From NCBI RefSeq assembly GCF_039655875.1, contig NZ_JBBYXK010000001.1:930001-994000 (forward strand): DNA of 64,000 bases, given 5' to 3'. Below, one piece after another: positions 5,728 to 10,845 of the stretch; position 1 is the first letter of the stretch, and each line of letters begins with the position of its first letter. A program made the position numbers and the translations under genes. Below the pieces are notes generated by a model. It was given only the letters and a program-made list of their open reading frames with translations. It was not told where the DNA came from and did no database searches. Source of the stretch: Emcibacter sp. SYSU 3D8. GTDB lineage: Bacteria; Pseudomonadota; Alphaproteobacteria; SMXS01.

Positions 5728-6018
5728 CTAGGCGGTTTCTTCCAGCTTCTTGCGCAGGCGGCGCTTCAGCAGCTGCGCGCCAGCCGACAATTCGTCAACT
5801 TTCGCCTTCAGCAGAAACGAATCCAGGCCGCCGCGATGCTCGACGGTGCGCAGGGCGTTAGCCGAGATGCGCAGGCGAACGGTTTCGTTCAGTGCGTCGC
5901 TGATCAGCGAAACATTGCGCAGGTTCGGCAGGAACCGGCGACGGCTCCTGTTGTTGGCGTGGCTGACGTTGTTACCCGTCTGAACGCCCTTACCGGTCAA
6001 TTCGCAAACTCGCGACAT
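5728..6018 (-). CDS. rpmB: 50S ribosomal protein L28
   Basis: L28 is a basic protein of the large ribosomal subunit. The 96-residue sequence starts [23 protein letters not shown] and has the conserved [13 protein letters not shown] core. The C-terminal extension after residue 75 ([12 protein letters not shown]) is common in alphaproteobacterial L28. It is transcribed alone and ends at the strong hairpin 5671-5702. Length and sequence are normal. Confidence 0.97.
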
Positions 6019-6125
6019 CGGTCAATCCTCTAGAAACGATTGCGGCACACATCCGCGCGCCGGGTCAGGGCGTGGTGTATAGGACAGGCATGGGATGGCG
6101 TCAAGGCGGGAAAACCCCGAAATCC

Positions 6126-7124
6126 TCAATCGGATTCGTGCCGGAAACGCTTGAGCAGCTTGTCGGCGGCGGCGCCCGGCGTGATCTTGCCCGCCGCCAC
6201 ATCGGCCTCGTATTTGTGCACCTTGGCGGCGATGGCCGGCTCGGCCTTGAAGGCCTCGATCAGGCCCTCGCGAATCTCGTTCCACATCCAGGCCCGGGCC
6301 TGGTCGGCGCGGCTGGCTTCCAGCTCGCCGGTCTCCAGCATGACGGTCTCGAAATTGGTGACCGCGTCCCACACCTCGCCGATGCCCTTGTTGGTCAGCG
6401 CCGAGGTGAGCAGCACATGCGGCTTCCAGTTGGCGCTGCGCGGGCGCATCAGGTGGAGCGCCGAGATCAGCTGGGACTGCGCCAGTTTGGCGGGCTGCTC
6501 CAGCGCGCCATCGGCCTTGTTGACCACGATCAGGTCGGCCAGTTCCATGATGCCGCGCTTGATGCCCTGCAGGTCGTCGCCGCCGCCGGGCGACTGCAGC
6601 AGCACGAACATGTCGACCATGTCGGCGACCGCTGTCTCGGACTGGCCCACGCCGACGGTTTCAATCAGCACCACGTCGAAACCGGCTGCTTCCACCAGCA
6701 GCATGGCCTCGCGGGTCCGGCGGGCGACGCCGCCCAGGGTGACGCCGGCGGGCGACGGCCGGATGAACGCGTCGGGATCTCGCGACAACTCTTCCATGCG
6801 GGTCTTGTCACCCAGGATGGAGCCGCCTGAGCGGGCCGAGGACGGGTCAACCGCCAGCACGGCCACCTTGTGTCCCAGTCCGGTCACATGCTTGCCCAGC
6901 GCCTCGATGAAAGTCGATTTGCCGACACCGGGCGCACCCGACAGGCCAAGGCGGATGGCCTTGCCGGTATCCGGCATGACGGCGTCGAGCAGTTTCTGCG
7001 CTTCGTGACGATGGTCGGCGCGAGTCGATTCAACCAGCGTGATGGCCCGGGCCAGTGCCCGGCGCTCGCCGGCGCGGAGTTTGTCCAGAAGGTCATGGGC
7101 TTTCATGACCAGTGTGGATGCCAT
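6126..7124 (-). CDS. meaB: Methylmalonyl-CoA mutase-associated GTPase MeaB
   Basis: A G3E-family P-loop GTPase that protects and gates adenosylcobalamin loading of methylmalonyl-CoA mutase. The 332-residue protein shows Walker [10 protein letters not shown] at about 62-70, the [18 protein letters not shown] segment, the switch region ETVGVGQSE and the base-recognition motif NKAD. No mutase gene is nearby. However, it lies a few kilobases from the cobalamin genes cobST, which supply its partner's cofactor. The C-terminal dimerisation arm is present. It stands alone between rpmB and the sulfide module. Confidence 0.93.
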
Positions 7125-7157
7125 GATCGGGCGGGGATGAAAAGGGTATAATCGCGC

Positions 7158-7553
7158 TCAGCCGACCCGCGCAAAGGCTGCCGATCCGGCCGGCGTCGCC
7201 TCCGCCGTATCGTCGCCGGCGGCAGGCTGCAGCGCCTCCATCGCAGCGGCGACGTCGTCGCCACCCATGATCGCTTCCAGCGCCCGGACGCACAGGCGAA
7301 CGCGGTCGCCGGCGAGGTCGTAATAGACCTGCTTGGCTTCGCGGCGGCTCCTGACCAGTTCGGCCTGGCGGAGTCCGGCCAGTTGCTGGCTAAGCGCGGG
7401 CTGCCCGATGCCGGTCAGCGAATCGATGTCACCGACCGTGCGCTCGCCGCGCAACAGGCATGACAGGATCATCAGCCGCTGCGTCTGCGCGTAGACCTTC
7501 AGCGTGTTTGCCGCCGCCTCTGCCCGGTCGCGGTCCTGGTACAGCGCCGTCAT
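7158..7553 (-). CDS. ArsR-family winged-helix repressor, BigR/SqrR-like
   Basis: A 131-residue ArsR-type regulator. The helix-turn-helix GIGQPALSQQLAGLRQAELVR and the wing RREAKQVYYDL match the BigR/SqrR subgroup that senses persulfide and represses sulfide-oxidation genes. That role fits its neighbours: a persulfide dioxygenase and SQR are divergent. Cys32 sits where BigR has its first sensing cysteine (helix 2). The second cysteine here is Cys88 in RLCVRAL, about one helix length before the usual position, where Gly is found instead. The ATG overlaps the peroxiredoxin stop as ATGA, so the two are coupled. A C-terminal Ala-rich tail follows residue 105. Confidence 0.85.
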   Translation of the reverse strand: MTALYQDRDRAEAAANTLKVYAQTQRLMILSCLLRGERTVGDIDSLTGIGQPALSQQLAGLRQAELVRSRREAKQVYYDLAGDRVRLCVRALEAIMGGDDVAAAMEALQPAAGDDTAEATPAGSAAFARVG

Positions 7554-8191
7554 GCTTCCTCCGCCAACCGGCAGAACCAGTCCTTCGAACCATCCCCGGC
7601 GGCCAGGCTGGTCGCAGGCGGCAGCAACACCGGCTGTCCGGGTTGCCATCCTTCCGGGGTCAGGACCCGATCGCCCTCGGCCCGCTGCAGCGCCGCGACC
7701 ATGCGCAGCATCTCGGCGACCGAACGCCCGACATTATGAGGGTACCAGGTCAACGCCCGGATGATGCCGCCCGGATCGATGAAGTAGCTGGCGCGGATGG
7801 AGGCGGAATCTCGGGCATTTTCGTCGACCATGCCATAGGCCCGCGCGACCGCCATGCTCGGATCCTCCACCACGGGGAACGGCACCGTTACGCCGAACAG
7901 GTCGCGGATCGCACGGGTCCAGGCAAGGTGGGAATACAGGCTGTCCACCGAAAGCCCGAGAAGATCGCAATCCAGCGCCAGAAACTGTTCCCTGGCGTTG
8001 GCGAGCGCGACGAACTCGGTGGTGCACACCGGCGTGAAGTCGGCGGGGTGCGAAAAGAATACCAGCCAGCGCCCCTGGTAATCCGAGAGAGTGACGTCGC
8101 CCATGGTTGTGCGGGCGCTAAAACCGGGTGCGGCCATCCCGATTCGCAGCGGGCCGGCCTGCTCGCTCATGGTGTGTTTGTGCTCGTCCAT
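7550..8191 (-). CDS. 1-Cys type peroxiredoxin (Prx6/AhpC-TSA family)
   Basis: A thiol peroxidase of about 213 residues. The peroxidatic Cys56 lies in the motif DFTPVCTTEF, and the Prx6-type C-terminal dimerisation domain (PHNVGRSVAEMLRMVAALQ) is present. Further cysteines at FLALDCD and near the end (WFCRLAEEA) could be resolving residues. It reduces peroxides and, by inference from context, could also handle persulfides. The start at 8191 is chosen for GGAG five bases upstream; ATG at 8206 is in frame. It is the first gene of a two-gene unit with the BigR-like repressor and is divergent from the persulfide dioxygenase gene. Confidence 0.88.
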   Translation of the reverse strand: MDEHKHTMSEQAGPLRIGMAAPGFSARTTMGDVTLSDYQGRWLVFFSHPADFTPVCTTEFVALANAREQFLALDCDLLGLSVDSLYSHLAWTRAIRDLFGVTVPFPVVEDPSMAVARAYGMVDENARDSASIRASYFIDPGGIIRALTWYPHNVGRSVAEMLRMVAALQRAEGDRVLTPEGWQPGQPVLLPPATSLAAGDGSKDWFCRLAEEA

Positions 8192-8233
8192 CGGTGCTCC
8201 GTTCATCTCGGCCTGTCTGCGACAGCCACCACC

Positions 8234-8276
8234 TTGACATAACTCTATTTCATAGTTACATATATACTGTAATTAT
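8234..8276 (+). promoter_or_regulatory. Promoter and operator of the sulfide module
   Basis: The 109-base divergent gap is strikingly AT-rich for this genome. A TTGACA at 8234-8239 stands 17 bases before TACATA at 8257-8262, a plausible sigma-70 pair for the persulfide dioxygenase gene. Overlapping the -10 is an inverted repeat at 8252-8276: ATAGTTACA, 7-base spacer, TGTAATTAT (8 of 9 pairs match). It fits the AT-rich palindromes bound by BigR-type repressors and is well placed to block both promoters. Confidence 0.7.
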
Positions 8277-8300
8277 TGGAATCATCAAGGCAGATCAACC

Positions 8301-9218
8301 ATGATCGACAATGCTCTCCGTCGCGCCGCTGCCCAGATCAAGGAAGCCCAGGCGCGAACTCCCGTCATCAAGGCGTTCTTCGACGACGCCACATTCACGG
8401 TTTCCTATGTCGTGCACGACGCAGCGACCAAGCGCGCGGCGATCATCGACAGCGTGCTCGATTATGATCCCGCTTCCGGCCACACCGCGCACACCTCCGC
8501 CGATGCCATCATCGCCTATGTGACCGGGCATGGCCTGGAAGTCGAATGGCTGCTCGAGACGCATGCCCATGCCGACCATCTGTCGGCCGCGCCCTATCTG
8601 CAGCAGGTGCTGGGCGGCAAGCTGGCCATCGGGGCGCAGATAACCGTCGTCCAGGAAACGTTCGGCAAGCTGTTCAACGCGGGGACCGAATTCGCCCGGG
8701 ACGGCTCGGATTTCGACAAGCTGTTCACCGACGGCGAGCAATTCAGGATTGGCGGGCTCGACGCCATCGCGCTGCATGTGCCGGGTCACACGCCGGCTGA
8801 CATGGCCTATGTGATCGGTGACGCGGCCTTCGTCGGCGACACCCTGTTCATGCCCGATTATGGCACCGCCCGCGCCGACTTTCCCGGCGGCGACGCGCGG
8901 CAGCTCTACCGTTCGATCCGGCTGTTGCTGTCCCTGCCCGATCACACGCGCCTGTTCATGTGCCACGATTACAAGGCGCCCGGCCGCGACCATTACGAGT
9001 GGCAGACGACGGTGGCCGAACAGCGTGCGGGCAATGTCCACGTCCATGAGGGCATCAGCGAGGATAGCTTTGCCGAGATGCGGGCCACCCGCGATGCGGC
9101 GCTGGGCATGCCGCGCCTGATCCTGCCATCCGTGCAGGTCAACATGCGTGGCGGGCATCTGCCGCCGGTGGAGGAAAATGGCGTGAGGTATCTCAAGATC
9201 CCGCTGGACGCGGTGTGA
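8301..9218 (+). CDS. Persulfide dioxygenase (ETHE1/Blh-type metallo-beta-lactamase fold)
   Basis: A 305-residue MBL-fold enzyme that oxidises glutathione persulfide to sulfite with a single iron. The metal motif THAHADH is at residues 87-93, followed by PGHTPADMAY and GDTLF, which supply the remaining ligands. The C-terminal ILPSVQVNMRGGHLP is typical of the Blh/ETHE1-like group found under BigR control. In the Blh proteins of Xylella and Agrobacterium this domain is preceded by a DUF442 rhodanese/phosphatase-like domain. Here that domain is absent and is fused to the next gene instead. The RBS is AAGGCAG before the ATG. It is cytoplasmic and the first gene of a two-gene operon with SQR. Confidence 0.9.
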   Translation: MIDNALRRAAAQIKEAQARTPVIKAFFDDATFTVSYVVHDAATKRAAIIDSVLDYDPASGHTAHTSADAIIAYVTGHGLEVEWLLETHAHADHLSAAPYLQQVLGGKLAIGAQITVVQETFGKLFNAGTEFARDGSDFDKLFTDGEQFRIGGLDAIALHVPGHTPADMAYVIGDAAFVGDTLFMPDYGTARADFPGGDARQLYRSIRLLLSLPDHTRLFMCHDYKAPGRDHYEWQTTVAEQRAGNVHVHEGISEDSFAEMRATRDAALGMPRLILPSVQVNMRGGHLPPVEENGVRYLKIPLDAV

Positions 9219-9264
9219 GACATAGCGGCGAAGGCAGGACGGCAATACCGGCAGGAGAAACCCG

Positions 9265-10845
9265 ATGAAGTACAAAGAAGTCGAACCAGGCTTTAATGTC
9301 TCGCCCCAGTTGCCGCCCGACCGCCTGGCGGAGCTTGCCAGTCGCGGATTCCGATCGGTCATCTGCAATCGGCCCGACGGCGAGGAGCCGGGGCAGCCGA
9401 GCGCGGAGACGATGCGGGCCGCCGCCGAAGCCGCCGGTCTCCAGTTCACGGCGATCCCGGTTGTCGGCGGCGCCATTGGCGACGCCGACGTGGCCCGGAT
9501 GGCCGCGGCCCTGGCCGAACTTCCCCGTCCCATCCTGGCCTATTGCAGATCCGGCGCACGCTCCGCGAAACTGTGGGAACTGGCGCAGGACAAGAATCCC
9601 CCGGCGCAGTACGACGTTGTGATCGTGGGCGGGGGCAGCGCCGGCATTGCGTCGGCGGCCAGCCTGCTCCGGCGCAGGCCCGGCCTGAGCATCGCCATCA
9701 TCGAACCCTCCGATGTTCACTATTACCAGCCCGGCTGGACTCTCGTCGGCGCCGGCGTCTTCACCCCGGAGGTTACAAGGCGCGCGACCGCGACCGTGAT
9801 TCCGGACGGTTGCACCTGGATCAGGGAATCCGCAGCCTCATTCGAGCCGGAATCCAACGCGGTGCGGCTTGCGGACGGAACACGGGTCAAATACCGGATT
9901 CTCGTCGCAGCGCCGGGCCTGAAGCTGGACTGGGACGCCATCCCCGGACTCAGCGAAACGCTGGGCAAAAACGGCGTCACGTCCAATTACAGGTACGACC
10001 TCGCGCCCTATACCTACAAGCTTGCCTGCGAGCTTTCCTCGGGCCGCGCCCTGTTTACCCAACCGCCCATGCCCATCAAGTGCGCGGGTGCGCCGCAGAA
10101 GGCGATGTATCTGAGCTGCGATCTCTGGCGCCGCGCCGGGAAACTCGGGAACATCGATGTCCAGTTCCATACGGCCGGCGCCGTGCTGTTCGGCGTGGCG
10201 GCCTACGTGCCCGCATTGAACGACTATGTTCAACGGTACGGAATCACGCTGAACCTGGAATCACGTCTGACTGCTGTCGACGGCAACGCCAGGGTCGCGA
10301 CCTTCGAGCACAAGGGTCCTGACGGCGCCGTCGCACACACCGAACAGCCGTTCGACATGCTGCACGCCGTGCCGCCTCAACTGGCCCCGGACTTCATCCG
10401 GTCCAGCGCGCTCGCGGGCGCCAGCGGATTCGTGGAGGTCGATGACGCGACCCTGCAGCATGCGCGCTACCCGAATGTCTTTGGCCTTGGCGATGCCTGC
10501 TCCGCCCCCAACGCAAAGACCGCCGCCGCCGCACGCAAGCAGGCCCCGGTCGTCGCCGAAAACGCACTCGCCGTGCTTGATGGCGCACCGCCGATCGCCG
10601 TCTACGACGGATATGGCAGCTGTCCGCTGACCGTCGAGCGCGGTCGGATCGTGCTGGCCGAGTTCGGTTATGGGGGCAAGCTCCTGCCCAGCTTCCCGAA
10701 ATGGCTGATCGACGGCACCCGCCCGAGCCGGGCCGCCTGGTTCCTGAAGGACCGGATCCTGCCCGCCCTGTACTGGCGAGGCATGCTCAAGGGCCGCGAA
10801 TGGCTGGCCAAGCCAGCCCACAAGCCCCTGGTTCCATCAGACTGA
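9265..10845 (+). CDS. DUF442 (phosphatase/rhodanese-like) - sulfide:quinone oxidoreductase fusion
   Basis: A 526-residue fusion. Residues 1-108 form a DUF442/TIGR01244 domain with a CRSGARS active loop at Cys94. From about residue 115 it is a flavoprotein with the FAD motif VGGGSAG (121-127). The flavoprotein part resembles mitochondrial-type (type II) SQR: Cys273 in IKCAGAPQK and Cys412 in GDACSAPNAKTAAA match the two redox cysteines of human SQOR. It would oxidise sulfide to a persulfide and pass electrons to quinone at the inner membrane. The rhodanese-like domain could shuttle the sulfane sulfur. It lies 46 bases after the persulfide dioxygenase gene, its natural partner. The C-terminal segment (FLKDRILPALYWRGMLKG) is typical for membrane association. 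Confidence 0.9.
   Translation: MKYKEVEPGFNVSPQLPPDRLAELASRGFRSVICNRPDGEEPGQPSAETMRAAAEAAGLQFTAIPVVGGAIGDADVARMAAALAELPRPILAYCRSGARSAKLWELAQDKNPPAQYDVVIVGGGSAGIASAASLLRRRPGLSIAIIEPSDVHYYQPGWTLVGAGVFTPEVTRRATATVIPDGCTWIRESAASFEPESNAVRLADGTRVKYRILVAAPGLKLDWDAIPGLSETLGKNGVTSNYRYDLAPYTYKLACELSSGRALFTQPPMPIKCAGAPQKAMYLSCDLWRRAGKLGNIDVQFHTAGAVLFGVAAYVPALNDYVQRYGITLNLESRLTAVDGNARVATFEHKGPDGAVAHTEQPFDMLHAVPPQLAPDFIRSSALAGASGFVEVDDATLQHARYPNVFGLGDACSAPNAKTAAAARKQAPVVAENALAVLDGAPPIAVYDGYGSCPLTVERGRIVLAEFGYGGKLLPSFPKWLIDGTRPSRAAWFLKDRILPALYWRGMLKGREWLAKPAHKPLVPSD

What the first reader, a model, noticed from the sequence alone, without database searches (positions are those of the whole stretch)
7158..10845. 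Rearranged sulfide/persulfide module: DUF442 fused to SQR instead of to the dioxygenase, with a peroxiredoxin coupled to the repressor
In the well-known BigR/Blh systems the DUF442 domain is joined to the persulfide dioxygenase. Here the dioxygenase stands alone and DUF442 (CRSGARS) is the N-terminal domain of a mitochondrial-type SQR. On the other side a 1-Cys peroxiredoxin is joined by ATGA to the ArsR-type regulator. Seen: domain order, catalytic motifs, overlaps. Known: BigR, ETHE1/Blh and SQR families; the DUF442-SQR fusion itself occurs elsewhere. Inferred: the rhodanese-like domain takes sulfane sulfur from SQR and hands it to the dioxygenase, while the peroxiredoxin limits peroxide or persulfide damage.
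Basis: partly seen in the sequence, partly recalled or inferred. Interest (0 to 1): 0.72.

Follow-up and report, generated by a model that had tools for sequence, protein, structure and literature searches.

The report
Sulfide-oxidation module with peroxiredoxin-linked repressor
A bacterial gene cluster that burns off toxic sulfide with enzymes in a common, already studied arrangement; what looks new is that its on/off protein has lost the usual sulfur-sensing cysteines and instead sits next to an antioxidant enzyme and carries a conserved tail found almost only in such pairs, as if the antioxidant enzyme did the sensing.

Summary
The four genes are there as described. The enzyme half is ordinary: DUF442-SQR beside a stand-alone persulfide dioxygenase (PDO) is the usual arrangement (of the 80 best relatives 75 fused, 73 with a PDO, none DUF442-fused), and its DUF442 domain has been assayed in Cupriavidus (PMC6441731).

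The unexpected part is the regulator. It lacks the BigR/SqrR sensing dithiol (S31, G97) and ends in a conserved tail. Among 112 distinct ArsR relatives the tail's core, [FW]A[RK] near the C-terminus, occurs in 37 of 43 beside a peroxiredoxin and 1 of 69 others. In two places of the tree regulators without peroxiredoxin also lack the tail. The canonical cysteine C42 is kept in 65 of 68 regulators without peroxiredoxin, 11 of 44 with it. A palindrome at 8256-8272, the genome's only TTACA-N7-TGTAA, recurs in relatives.

Best reading: an autoregulated sulfide-oxidation module in which the peroxiredoxin, docking on the tail, has taken over sensing. The docking is inferred, not shown.

The parts
7158..7553 (-). 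ArsR-type regulator, 131 aa; winged-helix core about 1-100, low-confidence linker about 101-121, conserved C-terminal tail GSAAFARVG; C32 and C88, no BigR-type dithiol
   Evidence: start placed at 7553 by the ATGA overlap and by relatives (the longest frame starts at 7649)
7161..7190 (-). codons of the C-terminal tail of the regulator (GSAAFARVG and the residue before it)
7550..8206 (-). Prx6-type peroxiredoxin, 218 aa, C61 (PVCTTE), C80, C-terminal WFC (C212)
7550..7553 (-). ATGA overlap joining peroxiredoxin stop and regulator start
   Evidence: ATGA in 33, GTGA in 6, neither in 4 of 43 homologous pairs
8234..8239 (+). putative -35 box TTGACA of the PDO-SQR promoter, 22 bp before the operator
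   Evidence: offset 22-23 bp in 25 of 35 regions; the simple promoter scan found none
8256..8272 (.). putative operator TTACATATATACTGTAA (consensus TTACATA-N3-TATGTAA)
   Evidence: only TTACA-N7-TGTAA in the 4.07 Mb genome; 21 of 35 divergent regions have it with at most 3 mismatches; 2 mismatches here
8301..9218 (+). stand-alone persulfide dioxygenase, 305 aa, of the type of PDB 9g8t/4ysk and of the C-terminal part of Blh
9265..9591 (+). DUF442 (BLH_phosphatase, TIGR01244) sulfurtransferase domain, residues 1-109, active-site C94 and R99
9607..10797 (+). human-like SQR domain, residues 115-511; C273 equals human C201, A411 stands at human C379, C412 one further on
9265..10845 (+). DUF442-SQR fusion gene, 526 aa

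Best explanation
A locally autoregulated sulfide/persulfide-oxidation module. SQR oxidises sulfide with quinone through FAD and C273; DUF442 (C94) moves the sulfane sulfur to a small thiol such as glutathione or to sulfite; the lone dioxygenase oxidises glutathione persulfide to sulfite. The ArsR repressor holds the divergent promoter by the palindrome at 8256-8272. In place of the BigR/SqrR dithiol, the co-translated peroxiredoxin is the redox sensor: in one thiol state (sulfenic acid or persulfide at C61) it binds or releases the regulator's C-terminal tail and so switches repression; in this subclade a thiol exchange between Prx C212 (WFC) and regulator C88 may lock the switch. Shown: genes, domains, conserved residues, tail, conserved palindrome. 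Known for relatives: DUF442 and PDO chemistry. Inferred: repressor-operator pairing, sensing by the peroxiredoxin, docking.
For: Domains and matches. Enzyme layout conserved. Homologous DUF442 active through C94: PMC6441731, PMC8533005 (passages). Palindrome: unique in the genome; 21 of 35 divergent regions with at most 3 mismatches, mean 2.7 against 5.7 in shuffles. Tail core [FW]A[RK] in the last 25 residues: 37 of 43 ArsRs beside a Prx and 1 of 69 others, that one (L059) having a Prx nearby in the same run of genes; the full G[AV]AxFA[RK][IVL]: 22 of 43 and 1 of 69, the same one. Motif positions G, A, F, A, R have 0.3-1.2 bits of entropy against 3.0-3.6 in the linker, with all synonymous codons in use at these five. 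Regulators in two places of the clade without Prx in the DNA held also lack the tail (L199; L069 and L198). A Prx-ArsR pair with no PDO in 5.4 kb still has the tail (L203), while 18 PDO-near ArsRs without Prx lack it. C42 kept in 65 of 68 ArsRs without Prx and 11 of 44 with it; 7 of 43 Prx-linked regulators have no cysteine at all. C88 and Prx WFC co-occur: 19 of 22 against 0 of 21.
Against: No binding or expression data. Prx-linked regulators lie on one side of a single branch, so the tail/Prx and C88/WFC associations rest on few independent events and the Fisher values overstate them. The sample is rich in the window's kin: starting from the Prx side (21 Prx hits in 289 genomes besides the window), 10 have an ArsR in the same run, and of these only 3 have the strict core, 6 have variants (FPT[IV] or FAVV) and 1 (L193) none that I would call a tail. 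The variants were recognised after the fact; the loose pattern that takes them in, L193 too, hits 43 of 43 with Prx and only L059 of 69 without. AlphaFold gives the tail low confidence (about 50), which fits a docking peptide but does not show one. Prx residues that set linked apart from unlinked copies are few (R32, V87, L90, V159, L194). In Rhodobacter, whose SqrR senses by two cysteines, only SQR and a rhodanese of five candidates, a peroxiredoxin among them, are said to affect polysulfide-induced transcription (PMC9995734, passages). 14 of 35 divergent regions have 4-6 mismatches to the palindrome, in the range of shuffles; the promoter scan found no sigma-70-like site.
Confidence: 0.5

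Rival explanations
1. Ordinary module with a self-sensing regulator: C88, with C32 or with C88 of the other subunit, forms the persulfide-linked switch, and the peroxiredoxin only removes peroxide or persulfide. The tail is an inherited oddity.
For: C88 (without C42 or C108) in 23 of 44 Prx-linked regulators; it lies in helix 83-96, which in ArsR proteins makes the dimer interface (recalled). A peroxiredoxin is among the genes up more than 10-fold with sulfide in Rhodobacter (PMC9995734, passages).
Against: C32 is not conserved in the clade; 10 of 44 Prx-linked regulators have none of C42, C88 or C108, and 7 of 43 have no cysteine. It leaves unexplained the tail conserved after a variable linker and absent together with Prx.
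Confidence: 0.3
2. The tail is a degradation signal: the regulator is removed by a protease when sulfide or peroxide appears, and Prx is linked only by operon membership.
For: A short conserved C-terminal peptide on a low-confidence linker is also how degrons look (general knowledge).
Against: In 10 of 43 regulators 4-14 residues follow the motif, so a free C-terminus is not needed; a degron need not follow the peroxiredoxin.
Confidence: 0.1
3. On the enzyme side (not exclusive with the above): DUF442 C94 replaces the missing second catalytic cysteine of human-type SQR, so that the fused domain is part of the SQR catalytic cycle and not merely a downstream transferase.
For: Human SQOR works through a C201-C379 trisulfide (PMC11039317, passages). 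0 of 99 distinct DUF442-linked SQRs (92 fused, 7 with an adjacent separate DUF442 gene) have Cys at the C379 place; 6 of 21 without DUF442 do, as does human; C. pinatubonensis HN-2 SQR has GDAG there.
Against: 10 of 21 SQRs without DUF442 also lack any Cys there, 6 of these 10 being remote relatives; the fused ones are mainly one lineage; 31 of 92 fused ones, and the window's, have a Cys one residue on, which might serve. Domain distances in the model could not be read.
Confidence: 0.3

Closest known systems
SQR (DUF442 fused) and PDO of Cupriavidus pinatubonensis JMP134 (CpSQR AAZ62946.1; PMC6441731, PMC8533005)
   Same: DUF442 with C34 and C94 at the same positions and a CRxGxR loop; in strain HN-2 (locus L058) a lone PDO lies directly before the fusion
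   Different: No Prx or ArsR match in the 13.7 kb held for L058; its regulator was not identified here
BigR operon with Blh (Xylella, Agrobacterium; PMC5823870)
   Same: ArsR-type repressor, DUF442 and dioxygenase activities in one operon
   Different: Blh joins DUF442 to the dioxygenase; BigR carries a redox cysteine pair (C42/C108, numbers recalled); here dioxygenase alone, pair absent, regulator tailed and Prx-linked
SqrR of Rhodobacter capsulatus (PMC9995734; PDB 6o8k, the name SqrR for this entry recalled)
   Same: ArsR relative (E 1.7e-14) tied to SQR; a peroxiredoxin is in its sulfide response
   Different: SqrR senses by a tetrasulfide between two cysteines (PMC9995734, passages); the first of these is Ser here
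Human SQOR (PDB 6oi5)
   Same: Fold (Z 51.4, rmsd 1.9 over 396 residues, 37% identity), C201
   Different: No DUF442 domain; C379 replaced by A411 in the window
Peroxiredoxin redox relays to transcription factors (yeast Orp1-Yap1 and the like; recalled)
   Same: A thiol peroxidase acting as sensor for a regulator would be the same idea
   Different: No such relay to an ArsR-family repressor in a sulfide operon was seen in the listings (titles, abstract starts and a few passages only)

Membership tests
BigR/SqrR persulfide-sensing repressors | ArsR winged-helix fold | tested here: met
   PF01022 42.2 bits over cut-off 22; BigR 3pqj E 3.5e-16
BigR/SqrR persulfide-sensing repressors | cysteine pair C42 and C108 (BigR numbering and the C108 place recalled) | tested here: not met
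   S31 and G97 at these places
BigR/SqrR persulfide-sensing repressors | NCBIfam NF040642 curated cut-off | tested here: not met
   77.3 bits against 155
BigR/SqrR persulfide-sensing repressors | derepression by persulfide or sulfide | not testable with these tools
   needs gel shift and reporter assays
CpSQR-type DUF442-SQR fusion | DUF442 domain with C94 and R99 before a human-like SQR | tested here: met
CpSQR-type DUF442-SQR fusion | sulfide:quinone reductase and rhodanese activity | not testable with these tools
   enzyme assay
Human-type SQR | fold and C201 | tested here: met
   Z 51.4 to 6oi5; C273
Human-type SQR | second redox cysteine C379 | tested here: not met
   A411; C412 is one residue on
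Blh (bifunctional sulfur transferase/dioxygenase) | DUF442 and dioxygenase in one chain | tested here: not met
   PDO matches only Blh 127-422, 395.8 bits against cut-off 625
Persulfide dioxygenase of the 4ysk type (Pseudomonas PDO, name recalled) | close solved relatives and MBL metal motifs | tested here: met
   9g8t E 5e-129, 4ysk E 2.8e-116; HAHADH etc. read in the sequence
Prx6-type (1-Cys) peroxiredoxin | family model and peroxidatic Cys | tested here: met
   NF009668 227.9 over 211; 1-cysPrx_C 30.1 over 21.1; PVCTTE
Prx6-type (1-Cys) peroxiredoxin | no resolving cysteine | tested here: inconclusive
   C-terminal WFC (C212) here and in 19 of 43 linked Prx could resolve

The most novel reading that the evidence does not exclude
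A new kind of redox-sensing repressor: in a clade of ArsR regulators the sensing thiols have been handed over to a co-encoded peroxiredoxin, which controls the repressor through a C-terminal docking peptide (typically G-[AV]-A-x-F-A-[RK]-[IVL]). In members with no cysteine at all the peroxiredoxin would be the only sensor; in the window's subclade a Prx C212 / regulator C88 exchange would be added.
Probability: 0.4. Interest if true: 0.8.

Novelty: new variant of a known kind. Interest (0 to 1): 0.6.

Why it matters
In the known BigR/SqrR systems persulfide is sensed by two cysteines within the repressor. Here is a lineage in which these cysteines are mostly lost while a peroxiredoxin gene and a tail on the repressor are kept together. 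If the peroxiredoxin is the sensor, this would be a bacterial peroxiredoxin relay to a transcription factor, with regulators that have no cysteine as a clean natural control. The absence of the second SQR cysteine in DUF442-linked SQRs also makes the role of the fused domain directly testable.

Tried and rejected
In-frame stops between DUF442 and SQR in five loci (L025, L026, L028, L053, L078) looked at first like selenocysteine; they are TAA or TAG followed by a new start, so two separate genes.

In a second set of 42 loci, chosen among others for SQRs without DUF442, one of the 28 loci with a PDO has a PDO frame with a weak DUF442 match, as Blh would (L170, 28.9 bits).

DUF442 in place of SQR C379 as a strict rule: not upheld, since 10 of 21 SQRs without DUF442 also have no Cys there.

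Paper searches for a Prx-ArsR relay or a peroxiredoxin in a BigR/PDO operon showed nothing on it in the listings; TrtA (PMC12724145, passages) proved unrelated. Xin 2016 (Environ Microbiol) was seen only as a citation in PMC8533005.

The promoter scan of 8100-8400 found no sigma-70-like site. Besides 8256-8272 the window holds two more sites with 3 mismatches to the palindrome (8798 and 27714); not followed. Predicted structures gave no coordinates, so the C94-C273 distance could not be measured. Flavoprotein chains filled the structure list, so the DUF442 part was not tested there.

Rows dropped or chosen: one search left out ArsR hits under 38 bits, frames open at a contig end (this drops L004), frames reaching more than 150 aa past the match, and duplicates of equal score and tail; 'beside' means a Prx match of 100 bits or more within 800 bases. 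60 of the best-listed places were fetched; G037:C1:878036, in that range, was missed by oversight, and two more (in G050, G180) were already held as L149 and L155. Searches also count the window's own regulator, hence 44 against 43; their 'Prx' group includes L193, which a loose pattern took in. Cysteines were counted from an estimated start. One search held two duplicate rows (L025/L026, L012/L153); one search gives the distinct counts.
Full report
WHAT IS THERE. Four genes: on the minus strand a peroxiredoxin (7550-8206) and an ArsR-type regulator (7158-7553) sharing ATGA; divergently a persulfide dioxygenase (8301-9218) and a DUF442-SQR fusion (9265-10845). Pfam, NCBIfam and PDB matches agree. 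The AlphaFold model of the fusion (39 sequences) has mean pLDDT 87.7; its SQR part matches human SQOR 6oi5 at Z 51.4. The genome has no second DUF442 and no second match to the fusion at E 0.001.

THE ENZYMES ARE ORDINARY. Of these 80, 75 have DUF442 fused to SQR and 5 have it as a separate gene directly before SQR; 73 of 80 hold a PDO, none fused to DUF442; 32 hold the Prx-ArsR pair by a strict adjacency rule. The DUF442 domain of the Cupriavidus pinatubonensis JMP134 SQR has rhodanese activity, and C94, not C34, is essential (PMC6441731, passages; R99 critical, PMC8533005, passages). Both cysteines and R99 stand at the same positions here. 29 of the 32 pair-bearing loci hold a pmpA or pmpB gene; in the four read (L003, L010, L020, L025) these lie between PDO and SQR. 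Here there is no room for them (46 bases), and the genome's copies lie elsewhere.

A POINT NOT IN THE FINDING. Human SQOR works through a C201-C379 trisulfide (PMC11039317, passages). The window keeps the first (C273) but has A411 at the second, with C412 one residue on. Of 99 distinct SQRs with a fused or adjacent DUF442 (window not counted), none has a Cys at the C379 place (32 have one at the next residue, 67 neither); of 21 without DUF442, 6 have it, 5 have the +1 Cys and 10 neither, 7 of the 21 being remote relatives. The fused ones are mainly one lineage, so this counts as few events. The reading that DUF442 C94 stands in for C379 is open and testable.

THE REGULATOR. It is a BigR relative (3pqj, E 3.5e-16) but under the BigR cut-off (77.3 of 155 bits). 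BigR C42 aligns with S31 (C32 is one residue on) and the C108 place with G97 (numbers recalled). Of its relatives, 65 of 68 that are not beside a Prx have C42 (47 also C108), but only 11 of 44 Prx-linked ones do (7 with both, 4 C42 only); 23 have C88 instead and 10 have none of the three. Seven of 43 Prx-linked regulators have no cysteine. The same genome holds a canonical-looking one (VLCQLS and EVFC) beside a SulP-like permease (name from recall) and pmpA/pmpB (L144).

THE TAIL. Prx-linked regulators end in a conserved peptide after a variable linker, typically G-[AV]-A-x-F-A-[RK]-[IVL]. In 112 distinct ArsRs (window excluded) its core [FW]A[RK] within the last 25 residues is in 37 of 43 beside a Prx and in 1 of 69 others (Fisher 4e-22, overstated because the rows are related). 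The full pattern is in 22 of 43 and 1 of 69. The one is L059, whose Prx lies in the same run of genes with PDO between. Of the 6 exceptions, three end in FPT[IV]R, one in FPTV and one in FAVV; L193 has at best a faint likeness. Entropy at the motif's G, A, F, A and R is 1.15, 0.54, 0.27, 0.45 and 1.01 bits against 3.0-3.6 in the linker, and all synonymous codons occur at these five positions (43 of 45 regulators, L193 and L148 having no anchor; rows were lined up by the F-A-R-I-like anchor, so G and A before it are the independent part). AlphaFold gives a confident core and about 50 for the end of the linker and the tail.

TREE. A starred branch (97/95) parts 48 rows from 65: 44 Prx-linked (window and L193 included), L059, and three with neither Prx nor tail (L199; L069 and L198), which fall in two separate starred groups and have a PDO nearby. 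So Prx and tail are absent together in two places inside the group. The alignment is short (99 columns) and the bootstrap had not settled. A Prx-ArsR pair with no PDO in 5.4 kb still has the tail (L203), and 18 PDO-near ArsRs without Prx lack it: the tail follows Prx, not PDO.

PRX. Regulator C88 and a Prx C-terminal WFC go together: 19 of 22 with C88 have it, 0 of 21 without (nested in one subclade). Looking from the Prx side gives a less kin-biased sample: 22 hits, the window's included, in 19 of 289 genomes at E up to 1e-48. Of the other 21, 10 have an ArsR in the same run: 3 with the strict core (L155, L203, L246), 6 with FPT[IV] or FAVV variants (L149, L187, L197, L148, L258, L259), 1 without (L193); 11 have none in the same run in the DNA held. 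So the FAR form is typical of the window's kin, and the wider pattern is a family of related endings. Residues separating 44 linked from 13 unlinked Prx are few.

OPERATOR. TTACATATATACTGTAA at 8256-8272 is the only TTACA-N7-TGTAA in 4.07 Mb (the reversed control has none). In 35 divergent regions (window included) the best match to TTACATA-N3-TATGTAA has on average 2.7 mismatches against 5.7 in shuffles; 21 have at most 3, 14 have 4-6, as shuffles often do; TTGAC stands 22-23 bp before it in 25. For the window itself one or more of 50 shuffles also reached 2 mismatches. The consensus was read from these same sequences. The sigma-70 scan found nothing.

MECHANISM. Shown: gene set, domains, conserved residues, tail, palindrome. 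Known for relatives: sulfur transfer by DUF442, GSSH oxidation by PDO. Inferred: regulator binds the palindrome; Prx senses; tail docks. The regulator needs some input; for cysteine-free members it cannot be a thiol of their own, and the tail-bearing pairing with Prx is the most direct candidate. Against it: one clade, variable tail outside the window's kin, no binding data, and in Rhodobacter no effect on polysulfide-induced transcription credited to a peroxiredoxin (PMC9995734, passages), where SqrR has its own cysteine pair.

VERDICT. The finding as titled is a real but common arrangement.

Noticed in passing
L025, L026, L028, L053, L078, L147, L156, L158: DUF442 and SQR are separate adjacent genes, mostly in Erythrobacteraceae-like loci and once in a genome of the window's genus (L147): natural un-fused versions.
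   Followed up: partly
L170:3768-5075 and 5989-7275: A PDO frame with a weak DUF442 match (Blh-like) beside an SQR without DUF442 that keeps the human-type second cysteine: the alternative wiring in one locus.
   Followed up: no
L173, L176: Two fused SQRs have A or G in place of the first catalytic cysteine (human C201), next to an extra DUF442 gene: possibly SQR-like proteins with another role.
   Followed up: no
L144:8176-10686 (own genome): pmpA/pmpB with a SulP-like permease and a second ArsR regulator that does have the BigR-type cysteines.
   Followed up: partly
own genome G000:C2:439562-440245: A second, remote dioxygenase-like MBL protein (36% identity).
   Followed up: no
L180-L186: A remote SQR-like family (37-40% identity) without DUF442, with GD[VI]xGVPKGK at the second-cysteine site and the first cysteine kept.
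   Followed up: no
window 6126-7124: GTPase of the MeaB/ArgK type directly downstream of the regulator (named from its sequence, recalled).
   Followed up: no
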